The notes below the pieces were generated by a model that worked only from the letters and a program-made list of their open reading frames with translations, ran no database searches and was not told the DNA's origin. The translations under genes were made by a program, and so were the position numbers. From NCBI GenBank assembly GCA_004376295.1, contig SOJZ01000012.1:1-64000 (forward strand): DNA of 64,000 nucleotides, given 5' to 3'. Positions within the stretch are counted from its first letter, which is position 1; the number at the start of each line of letters is the position of its first letter. This DNA is from Candidatus Bathyarchaeota archaeon. Its GTDB lineage: Archaea > Thermoproteota > Bathyarchaeia > Bathyarchaeales > Bathyarchaeaceae. Shown one piece after another: positions 27,456-52,897 of this stretch.

Positions 27456-27533
27456 TCGATTTTGGCATTGTCTTGGGTGAAATTGAATCCGAAAACTTGC
27501 GACAACGAGACCTCATTTTAGTATATTCCACTC

Positions 27534-27594
27534 TTGCTAAGAAAGCCTGTGGTCCTTACGGGCCGCGTGGGTTCAAATCCCACCCCCGGCGCCA
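27534..27594 (+). pseudogene. 3' half of a tRNA-Ser gene
   Basis: The sequence has a GCT-compatible anticodon loop (TTGCTAA), a long variable arm (GTGGTCC/GGGCCGC with a 4-base loop), T-arm GTGGG-TTCAAAT-CCCAC, acceptor strand CCCCGGC, discriminator G and encoded CCA. Long variable arm and G73 mark serine. The matching 5' half (GCCGGGG, D-arm) is absent upstream. Such 3' fragments are the usual scar of integration into a tRNA gene, and an integrase remnant lies 0.9 kb away. A split-tRNA 3' half is the less likely alternative. Confidence 0.7.
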
Positions 27595-27639
27595 AAATAA
27601 TTTTGAAGCGATAGCTGAGGACAATTCGGTGGAAGACTT

Positions 27640-42560: not shown

Positions 42561-42652
42561 GGGCCGGTAGTTCAGTTTGGTATGAACGCCGCCTTCGCGT
42601 GCCAAGCCGAAAAAGGCGGAAGCCGCGGGTTCAAATCCCGCCCGGTCCACCA
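42561..42652 (+). tRNA. tRNA-Ala (CGC) with a 14-nt intron
   Basis: Acceptor GGGCCGG/CCGGTCC contains the G3-U70 pair that specifies alanine. D-arm GTTC/GAAC, anticodon stem CCGCC/GGCGG, T-arm GCGGG-TTCAAAT-CCCGC, discriminator A, encoded CCA. The anticodon CGC is at 42596-42598. A 14-nt intron (42600-42613) lies at 37/38. Its splice site forms a perfect bulge-helix-bulge: TTCG (42594-42597) pairs with CGAA (42608-42611), each followed by a three-base bulge cut after the second base. Confidence 0.92.
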
Positions 42653-51407: not shown

Positions 51408-51586
51408 GATGACACCTCCTTTGGTTAATTGAATAGTTCTTTAACATCAAAAGGTTTTCTAATCCCTCTTCCGCTAAAGGAACCACTTGTATATTATGCG
51501 TGCGCATCTGAAGTTCGGCATCTCTGCAACCAAACTTTAAATATCGCTACAAAGTGTCAAATTAAACGGTGCCGCTGAAAAATCAA

Positions 51587-51717
51587 GCCGCCGTACACGC
51601 AACACAAACGTGGGCGAAAGCTCAGTTAGGTAGAGCAACTGACTTTGATAGAGTCTCTGTCAGAGGTTGAAGCTGTTAACCAGTTGGTCGACGGTCCGAA
51701 TCCGTCCGGCGGCGCCA
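51587..51717 (+). tRNA. tRNA-Asn (GTT) with introns at 8/9 and 30/31
   Basis: Acceptor GCCGCCG/CGGCGGC, D-arm GCTC/GAGC, anticodon loop CTGTTAA, T-arm GACGG-TCCGAAT-CCGTC, discriminator G, CCA encoded. The acceptor is separated from the D-arm by a 24-nt intron (51595-51618). It forms a full bulge-helix-bulge: helix CGCC/GGCG, bulges GTA and AAA, internal helix CACG/CGTG, outer pairs AGC/GCT. A second intron of 30 nt (51642-51671) lies at 30/31 with helix CAAC/GTTG. Removing both leaves a standard 77-nt tRNA including CCA. Confidence 0.92.
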
Positions 51718-52031: not shown

Positions 52032-52076
52032 AGTCTCTTCCAGCTTCGCAGGCAGATATTTATCAACAATGTATGT
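52032..52076 (-). repeat. attL: displaced original 3' end of top6A
   Basis: On the minus strand it reads TYIVDKYLPAKLEETS and a stop, i.e. an alternative end of top6A. It differs from the right copy at two positions (52040, 52061). The integrase C-part ATG (52073) lies inside it. Confidence 0.88.
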
Positions 52077-52897
52077 ATAATAGATTACCTAAAGACTTTT
52101 CATTGTTTGCTATGATTGACCTGCAACTATCAAGAGGTACTGTAAGAACGTATAGAAGCTGTCTAAAGATCTTCTTCAAGACGGTCAGGAAGCCAATTAC
52201 AGAGAACGCTATCAGGAATTTTCTTTGGAACTATAGCCAAAAATACCCTAACAAATCGACTTACTCCAATATGCTGAAAGCCTTGAAATGTTACTTCAAA
52301 CGCTATCTTAGGTTGGATATAACTAACTCCTTCAAATTTCCCAAACAGACTTACACTCCTAAAAGAGTGCCTGCCAAAGAACAGCTACAAGAATTCTATG
52401 CAGCATTACCCACATTAAAGGAACGTACCCTGTTTCTTCTTTATGCTACTAGTGGTTTACGAAAGAGTGAAATTATGTCAATGAAGTTGAAAGACTTGGA
52501 TTTGGACAGTCGAATGATTATTCCAAATGTTCATGGGGGCAATACGAAAAAGTCATGGATTGGTTTCTTTAACGAAGAGGCTCAAGAGGCTCTAGAGAAA
52601 TATTTAGCGAAGTGTAAACAGAATGCACAATACTACCGTAAAGTTAGAGTTTTTAACCCCTCAAAGAATCCCACTCGATGGAAAGAAGCTAGAGAAAGAA
52701 CAGGATTAAACGTTACTCCCAGAGTGCTTCGAGACTGGTTCTGTTGCCAAATGGGGGAACTAAGTGTTCCAGACAGATACATTGATGCTTTCTGTGGTAG
52801 AGTACCCAGATCAATACTTGCTAGACACTATACCGACTATAGTCCAGAAAGACTAAAACGAATCTATGATAAAGCAAACCTCAAAGTACTCTCCTAA
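52073..52897 (+). CDS. int: Integrase, C-terminal (catalytic) part
   Basis: This 274-residue tyrosine recombinase part has a SAM-like core-binding domain (residues 15-95) and a catalytic domain. The catalytic Arg is in TSGLRKSEI; box II is TPRVLRDWF, with Arg where His is usual; the nucleophile Tyr is in ARHYTDYSP. Its ATG lies inside attL and its frame is open leftward through the repeat until a stop just outside (52031-52033). In the circular form it would join in frame with the zinc-finger gene at the right end, giving a protein of about 390 residues. Confidence 0.88.
   Translation: MYNRLPKDFSLFAMIDLQLSRGTVRTYRSCLKIFFKTVRKPITENAIRNFLWNYSQKYPNKSTYSNMLKALKCYFKRYLRLDITNSFKFPKQTYTPKRVPAKEQLQEFYAALPTLKERTLFLLYATSGLRKSEIMSMKLKDLDLDSRMIIPNVHGGNTKKSWIGFFNEEAQEALEKYLAKCKQNAQYYRKVRVFNPSKNPTRWKEARERTGLNVTPRVLRDWFCCQMGELSVPDRYIDAFCGRVPRSILARHYTDYSPERLKRIYDKANLKVLS

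What the first reader, a model, noticed from the sequence alone, without database searches (positions are those of the whole stretch)
51587..51717. tRNA-Asn with a non-canonical intron between acceptor stem and D-arm, plus one at 30/31
Seen: a 24-nt intron after position 8 forms a complete bulge-helix-bulge (CGCC/GGCG helix, GTA and AAA bulges, inner CACG/CGTG, outer AGC/GCT). A second 30-nt intron sits at 30/31 (CAAC/GTTG). Removing both gives a perfect tRNA. Known: introns outside 37/38 are concentrated in some Thermoproteota and need a heteromeric splicing endonuclease. A standard tRNA finder may miss this gene.
Basis: partly seen in the sequence, partly recalled or inferred. Interest (0 to 1): 0.75.

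Follow-up and report, generated by a model that had tools for sequence, protein, structure and literature searches.

The report
Stand-in strand helps splice archaeal tRNA
A gene for an essential tRNA in an uncultured archaeon (Bathyarchaeia) is interrupted by two introns, and just upstream it carries a short copy of one tRNA strand that appears to hold the tRNA's tail out of the way so that the awkwardly placed intron can be cut out; the same arrangement occurs in several other tRNAs and relatives.

Summary
Window 51587-51717 is the only tRNA-Asn(GTT) found in a 99.8%-complete Bathyarchaeia genome. It has a 24-nt intron at 8/9 and a 30-nt intron at 30/31, both with bulge-helix-bulge (BHB) motifs, and ARAGORN and Rfam miss it. 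The genome has a catalytic and a His-less splicing-endonuclease subunit and RtcB.

The 8/9 BHB ties up the tRNA's own 5' acceptor strand. At the predicted start of transcription lies a 10-nt "stand-in" strand (51568-51577) complementary to the tRNA 3' end (acceptor, discriminator, CC). All 24 archaeal Asn genes with the 8/9 intron carry it, against 1 of 81 with neither an 8/9 nor a 63/64 intron. All 9 tRNA-Gln genes with a 10/11 intron carry it. In this genome so do iMet, Ser, Glu and Arg genes with introns near the acceptor. Its sequence co-varies with each tRNA's 3' end.

Best model: the stand-in pairs with the 3' strand, freeing the 5' strand to form the BHB; after splicing the strands exchange. 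Pairing is strongly supported; function is inferred. A few stand-ins occur without such introns (tRNA-Asp). I found no earlier description in the papers I could search.

The parts
51536..51543 (+). TATA-box-like TTTAAATA
   Evidence: Sequence. Among Asn genes with the 8/9 intron and a recognisable TATA box, the stand-in starts 30-37 nt after the TATA start, mostly 30-33, i.e. at the expected transcription start. Start site predicted, not measured.
51568..51577 (+). Leader stand-in (mimic) strand GGTGCCGCTG, complementary to the tRNA 3' end 51707-51716
   Evidence: 10 consecutive pairs with positions 66-75 of the tRNA; present in 24/24 archaeal Asn genes with the 8/9 intron versus 1/81 without 8/9 or 63/64 introns; co-varies across isotypes.
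51578..51586 (+). Leader linker; A at 51586 pairs with T at 51622 in the BHB outer helix
51587..51594 (+). Exon 1: acceptor 5' strand plus U8 (GCCGCCGT)
51595..51618 (+). 24-nt intron at 8/9
   Evidence: BHB search top score; in the predicted minimum-energy fold of the precursor; 0/200,000 shuffles
51586..51622 (+). Bulge-helix-bulge of the 8/9 intron: AGC-CGCC-(GTA)-CACG ... CGTG-GGCG-(AAA)-GCT
51619..51641 (+). Exon 2: A9, D-arm, start of anticodon stem
51642..51671 (+). 30-nt intron at 30/31; BHB central helix CAAC (51636-51639) / GTTG (51666-51669)
   Evidence: present in most fetched Asn orthologues read
51672..51717 (+). Exon 3: anticodon GTT (51675-51677), T-arm, acceptor 3' strand, G73, encoded CCA
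51707..51716 (+). 3' target of the stand-in: CGGCGGC-G-CC (positions 66-75)

Best explanation
The locus is a functional, single-copy tRNA-Asn(GUU) gene whose transcript is spliced twice by the heteromeric (alpha-beta) archaeal splicing endonuclease and sealed by RtcB. The 8/9 intron poses a special problem: its BHB uses the tRNA's own 5' acceptor strand (A-1 to C6) and the 5' side of the D-stem, so it cannot coexist with the acceptor stem. The transcript therefore starts with a stand-in strand that pairs with the 3' acceptor strand, discriminator and CC. This frees the 5' strand for the BHB and covers the 3' end. After the intron is removed the true 5' strand takes over the 3' strand, the cloverleaf forms, and RNase P removes the leader with the stand-in. 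Shown: the gene anatomy, the stand-in, its co-variation with the 3' end, its position at the predicted transcript start, its association with acceptor-proximal introns in several isotypes, and that predicted folding of pre-tRNA-Asn gives the BHB only with it. Inferred: transcription start, splicing, the freeing role, strand exchange, RNase P step.
For: Gene and BHBs. Single copy. Endonuclease alpha and beta and RtcB. Stand-in in 24/24 archaeal Asn genes with the 8/9 intron (run of 8-10 pairs) versus 1/81 with neither an 8/9 nor a 63/64 intron (Fisher p about 1e-22, not corrected for relatedness). A search for Gln 10/11 introns that did not look at leaders found 9 genes in 7 genomes; all 9 have the AGCCCGG copy in otherwise different leaders. 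In the own genome all 7 tRNAs with introns at 4/5, 8/9, 9/10 or 10/11 (Asn, iMet, two Gln, Ser, Glu, Arg) have one (6-10 consecutive pairs; 6 of 7 have at least 7), versus 1 of 36 other tRNAs with at least 7. Other lineages: Lys and Asn in one 'Thaumarchaeota' MAG, Thr and Asn in another. Covariation: 89.2% of cells paired, 60 cells with changes on both sides, score 0.627 versus 0.239 shuffled (0/500), slid structures 0.07-0.13. It includes position 73, unpaired in a mature tRNA: mostly U opposite A73, C or U opposite G73. Leaders fit their own tRNA best overall. Predicted folding of pre-tRNA-Asn: the minimum-energy structure is the exact 8/9 BHB plus stand-in/3'-end helix; mean probability of the central BHB helix 0.51 with the stand-in, 0.000 without. 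Where the Asn intron is absent the element appears degraded in genus g13 (L119-L122) and in L193.
Against: No RNA evidence. tRNA-Asp has a stand-in without any acceptor-proximal intron in G000, G001, G029 and, with a bulge, in G013, and one Asn copy (L150) has it with only the 30/31 intron. Four Asn genes have it with a 63/64 intron instead of 8/9. For Ser, Glu, iMet and Arg the calculated cost of the BHB hardly depends on the stand-in sequence, and composition-preserving shuffles of GC-rich stand-ins often do nearly as well. After splicing, the stand-in helix is still calculated 7.9 kcal/mol more stable than the true acceptor stem, so something else (tertiary contacts, RNase P, a helicase) must drive the exchange. 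In Asn genes of family f9 the BHB central helix has a C-A mismatch and a continuous hairpin is favoured. One own-genome Ser candidate (L220) may have an intron near 8 and has no stand-in or clear BHB.
Confidence: 0.7

Rival explanations
1. The stand-in is mainly a protective lock: by pairing with the 3' acceptor strand and CCA it blocks RNase P, 3' trimming or charging until splicing is done. Freeing the 5' strand for the BHB is a side effect.
For: In many genes pairing extends over the discriminator and CC, and to the trailer in L095 and L260. It occurs with 63/64 introns, which should not need the 5' strand freed, and with intronless Asp. Folding gain is clear only for Asn and the two Gln.
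Against: 36 other tRNAs of the genome, many with introns in the D-loop or anticodon loop, lack it except Asp. In several genes (Gln, Thr) the pairing to 74-75 is incomplete while 66-72 is perfect.
Confidence: 0.2
2. The upstream copy is the real 5' acceptor strand of the mature tRNA, and everything from it to the D-arm is one longer intron.
For: In Gln, Ser and Arg the copy equals the acceptor strand over 7 nt.
Against: In many Asn genes the copy lacks G7 or has U for C, and no splice choice restores U8-A9; the BHB inner helices flank the downstream copy; the copy extends complementarity to G73 and CC, which an exon would not need.
Confidence: 0.03
3. The upstream copy is a DNA-level scar, such as an integration-site or tandem duplication of the tRNA 5' end, with no RNA function.
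For: tRNA genes are integration targets; tRNA 3' fragments occur in this genome (window 27566, L219) and a tyrosine-recombinase-like gene lies at 52073-52897.
Against: The sequence is complementary to the 3' end including N73 and CC; most substitutions keep pairing through G-U or compensation; it recurs in eight isotypes and two classes and sits at a fixed distance from the TATA box. No second copy of the tRNA 3' end in the window.
Confidence: 0.03
4. The gene is a pseudogene or an assembly error and another tRNA-Asn serves the cell.
For: Standard finders miss it.
Against: No other tRNA-Asn in a 99.8%-complete genome; the same structure in sister genomes assembled independently; perfect mature tRNA after intron removal.
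Confidence: 0.02

Closest known systems
Archaeal tRNA introns at non-canonical positions with BHB motifs (reviewed in PMC4090602; surveyed in PMC8450103)
   Same: BHB motif, introns outside 37/38, several introns per gene, alpha-beta type endonuclease
   Different: Positions 4/5, 8/9, 9/10 and 10/11 are not among those named in the review (20/21 onward, plus 3/4 as an extreme; its list is not closed, 'etc.'). A leader strand matched to the 3' end is not described in the passages I read.
Split (trans-spliced) tRNAs of Nanoarchaeum, Caldivirga and Desulfurococcales (PMC4090602, PMC3218864)
   Same: Leader or trailer segments outside the mature tRNA that base-pair to build a splicing substrate
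   Different: Here one continuous transcript; the leader pairs with the mature 3' end, not with a partner trailer, and does not itself build the BHB.
Permuted tRNAs (Thermofilum pendens iMet and Tyr, PMC3218864)
   Same: Long distance between promoter and tRNA; tRNA-like sequence between them
   Different: In permuted genes the upstream piece is the 3' half itself; here it is the complement of the 3' end and the gene order is normal.
Heterotetrameric (alpha-beta)2 archaeal splicing endonuclease (for example 3p1z, 2zyz, 3ajv)
   Same: Two paralogues in the genome, one with Y/H/K and one without the His
   Different: Nothing unusual seen at sequence level; not assayed.

Membership tests
Archaeal BHB tRNA intron | Two 3-nt bulges separated by a 4-bp central helix, cut sites in the bulges give a correct mature tRNA | tested here: met
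   (both introns)
Archaeal BHB tRNA intron | Excised by the splicing endonuclease in the cell | not testable with these tools
   No RNA data; candidate enzyme genes present
(alpha-beta)2 splicing endonuclease | Two paralogous subunits, one catalytic (Tyr, His, Lys) and one structural | tested here: met
   L001 keeps YRDMRDRG, DHAPY and VRK; L002 has ETAKY where the His should be
(alpha-beta)2 splicing endonuclease | Assembles as a heterotetramer and cleaves relaxed motifs | not testable with these tools
   Sequence only
Split tRNA | Halves encoded at separate loci | tested here: not met
   All exons are contiguous and in order at one locus
[quoted passage not shown]
   Upstream element is the complement of the 3' end and the true 3' end is downstream
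Leader stand-in strand (proposed here) | Leader sequence co-varies with the tRNA 3' end | tested here: met
   cognate test
Leader stand-in strand (proposed here) | Occurs with introns whose BHB takes the 5' acceptor strand | tested here: met
   24/24 Asn, 9/9 Gln, 7/7 in the own genome (iMet with 6 consecutive pairs)
Leader stand-in strand (proposed here) | Absent where no such intron exists | tested here: inconclusive
   1/81 Asn and 1/36 own tRNAs have it, plus four Asn genes with a 63/64 intron, but Asp in up to four genomes is an exception

The most novel reading that the evidence does not exclude
In Bathyarchaeia and some Nitrososphaeria-like archaea, introns that invade the acceptor side of a tRNA are spliced with the help of a cis-encoded stand-in acceptor strand in the 5' leader. 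Maturation is then a two-state strand exchange (stand-in/3' strand to true 5'/3' strand), a pre-tRNA architecture not previously recognised, and tRNA-Asp shows it can persist or act without an intron.
Probability: 0.6. Interest if true: 0.85.

Novelty: new variant of a known kind. Interest (0 to 1): 0.72.

Why it matters
It answers how an intron can sit where its splicing motif destroys the acceptor stem, and it shows that part of the information for splicing lies outside the tRNA gene as annotated. It gives gene finders a new signal, since several of these tRNAs score below the cut-offs of standard finders, and it is a natural strand-displacement switch that can be tested in vitro with few parts.

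Tried and rejected
Exact-pattern scan of named genomes: 17 of the 53 hits were archaeal; the bacterial loci are chance and were dropped. Phylum-wide pattern searches for Asn and Thr: outside Bathyarchaeia the phylum hits were chance matches (L231, L233, L305) or the possibly mis-binned L094/L232; Nitrososphaeria-like examples came only from the named-genome scan. Hypothesis that the upstream copy is the exon: rejected on U8/G7 and BHB geometry. Hypothesis that intronless tRNA-Asp with a stand-in is a relic of a lost 10/11 intron: no relative with such an Asp intron found among the genomes searched, so left open. Composition-preserving shuffles of the stand-in turned out to be a weak control because GC-rich shuffles still pair. 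Integration-site origin: no repeat of the tRNA 3' end in the window. Literature searches for a leader that pairs with the tRNA 3' end in intron-containing archaeal pre-tRNAs gave nothing relevant; subscription papers, including the key Thermoproteales intron survey, are not in the library.

Full report
Observation. Window 51587-51717 holds a tRNA-Asn(GTT) gene with encoded CCA, a 24-nt intron between positions 8 and 9 and a 30-nt intron between 30 and 31. Shuffling the introns reproduces the helices in 0 and 7 of 200,000 trials, and the 77-nt product is called tRNA-Asn by ARAGORN, whereas the gene as it stands is not. ARAGORN and Rfam at gathering score miss it in the window; the whole-genome RF00005 match is 27.2 bits against a cut-off of 29. 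The genome is 1.89 Mb in 44 contigs, 99.79% complete; relatives among named genomes are titled Candidatus Bathyarchaeota. No other tRNA-Asn was found.

Enzymes. The genome has two splicing-endonuclease genes. L001 keeps the catalytic Tyr, His and Lys and is closest to crenarchaeal solved chains 3p1z_B, 2cv8_A and 3ajv_B; L002 lacks the His. This matches the alpha-beta type that the literature links to non-canonical introns (PMC4090602). RtcB is present.

Distribution of the introns. The 30/31 intron is widespread in Asn genes of the order but absent in some lineages (for example the g13 genes L119-L122). The 8/9 intron is patchy: the window's genus, families f8, f9, f18, f22 and f24, a contig binned as Wolframiiraptor (L094), and two 'Thaumarchaeota' MAGs. 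One sister genome (G001, L134) appears to have a third intron in the T-loop.

The leader element. Reading the flanks of these loci showed a GGYGCCGCY box about 20 nt before the tRNA, the reverse complement of its 3' end CGGCGGC-G-CC. In 24 of 24 archaeal Asn genes with the 8/9 intron the leader holds a run of 8-10 pairs; among 81 genes with neither an 8/9 nor a 63/64 intron one does. These 24 genes are related and the p-value ignores that; the number of independent intron gains is unknown. Four further genes with an intron at about 63/64 also have it. Among genes with a recognisable TATA box the element begins 30-37 nt after the TATA start (mostly 30-33), where transcription should start; the TATA-to-tRNA distance is longer in intron-bearing genes (median 58) than in the others (median 44). 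In genes without the 8/9 intron of genus g13 (L119-L122) and in L193 the long leader remains but the box looks degraded.

Other tRNAs. In the own genome a scan for second copies of the acceptor strand found them upstream of iMet, Gln-CUG, Gln-UUG, Ser-UGA, Glu and Arg. A BHB search, read together with the expected mature sequence, places introns at 4/5 in iMet, 8/9 in Ser, 9/10 in Arg and 10/11 in the Gln and Glu genes (for Glu the top-scoring BHBs were at 11/12-12/13, and 10/11 was chosen because it restores the normal tRNA-Glu sequence, with a C-A mismatch in the central helix). All these BHBs use the 5' acceptor strand or the nucleotides before it. By a strict run of 7 pairs, 6 of 7 such genes and 1 of 36 others score (Fisher p 8e-6); iMet has 6 consecutive pairs plus further pairs across a bulge, while its sister G003 has 10. 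A class-wide pattern search for Gln 10/11 introns, blind to leaders, returned 9 genes in 7 genomes and every leader carries AGCCCGG. In the two MAGs reached through L080 and L095, Lys and Thr genes with 8/9 introns have it, whereas tRNAs whose introns leave the acceptor strand alone do not.

Covariation. On 26 distinct stand-in/3'-end pairs from eight isotypes, 89.2% of cells pair, nine of ten pairs change on both sides, 60 cells carry such changes, and the covariation score is 0.627 against 0.239 in shuffles (0/500) and 0.07-0.13 for slid structures. Rows of one isotype are related, so cells are not independent events; the number of isotypes is the fairer count. Because the acceptor 5' strand co-varies with the 3' strand in any tRNA, a plain copy would also co-vary; the telling part is position 73, unpaired in the mature tRNA, where A73 mostly meets U and G73 meets C or U, and the trailer in L095 and L260, where the leader changed with it. 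Leaders fit their own 3' end better overall than those of other isotypes.

Mechanism. The predicted minimum-energy fold of the pre-tRNA from the stand-in to CCA is the exact 8/9 BHB, a hairpin for the second intron, and the stand-in paired to the 3' end (z = -4.1 against shuffles). Without the leader the acceptor stem forms and the BHB disappears; the mean probability of the central BHB helix falls from 0.51 to 0.000. The two Gln genes behave alike (0.77 to 0.03 and 0.09 to 0.000); Ser partly; Glu, iMet and Arg show no clear effect in this calculation. I therefore infer that the stand-in frees the 5' strand. After splicing the model still prefers the stand-in helix by 7.9 kcal/mol, so strand exchange needs help that secondary-structure energies do not contain. 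A protective role for the CCA end is a serious rival and could be true as well.

Exceptions. tRNA-Asp has a stand-in without an acceptor-proximal intron in G000 (L050), G001 (L260) and, perfectly, in G029 (L264), and with one bulge in G013 (L279); other relatives lack it. A second Asn copy in G055 (L150) has it without the 8/9 intron. These may be relics or signs of another role. In family f9 the Asn BHB has a C-A mismatch in the central helix, a competing continuous hairpin, and leaders ending in TGA that lengthen the outer helix; L148 restores a pair with U5.

Comparison and novelty. As an intron this is a member of the archaeal BHB class at positions outside those named in the review consulted (PMC4090602, whose list ends with 'etc.'). 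It is not a split or permuted tRNA. A leader strand dedicated to holding the 3' end of an intron-bearing pre-tRNA was not found in the searchable literature, with the limit that many subscription papers are not held. I rate it a new variant of a known kind.

Noticed in passing
L050 (G000:C44:13-87 -), L260, L264, L279: tRNA-Asp genes without an acceptor-proximal intron that still carry the leader stand-in (11 pairs in L264); G001 changes the leader together with its trailer.
   Followed up: partly
L134 / L005 (G001): tRNA-Asn with an apparent third intron in the T-loop (ACGTGTAGCACCAAATCACCGGA or similar).
   Followed up: no
L116, L146, L148, L149: Asn genes with extra introns near the variable loop, T-arm or at 63/64, up to three or more per gene.
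   Followed up: partly
L206 (G000:C31:128748 +) and L247: Initiator tRNA-Met with a 42-nt intron at 4/5, inside the acceptor stem; the BHB uses leader nucleotides -5 to -1.
   Followed up: partly
window 27500-27600 (RF00005 match 27566-27583 +): 3' part of a serine-type tRNA (anticodon loop to CCA) with no 5' half found nearby; fragment, integration-site remnant or split-tRNA half.
   Followed up: no
G000:C24 7617-7709 and 9168-9189 (L052, L219): A tRNA gene and, 1.5 kb away, a copy of its 3' half including the intron.
   Followed up: no
window 42561-42652: tRNA with an intron in the anticodon arm that ARAGORN could not assign an anticodon.
   Followed up: no
window 52073-52897 (+): Tyrosine-recombinase-like ORF 356 bases downstream of the tRNA-Asn; no second copy of the tRNA 3' end found in the window.
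   Followed up: partly
L220 (G000:C4:14143 -): Serine tRNA candidate with a large insert after position 7-8, no clear BHB and no stand-in.
   Followed up: partly
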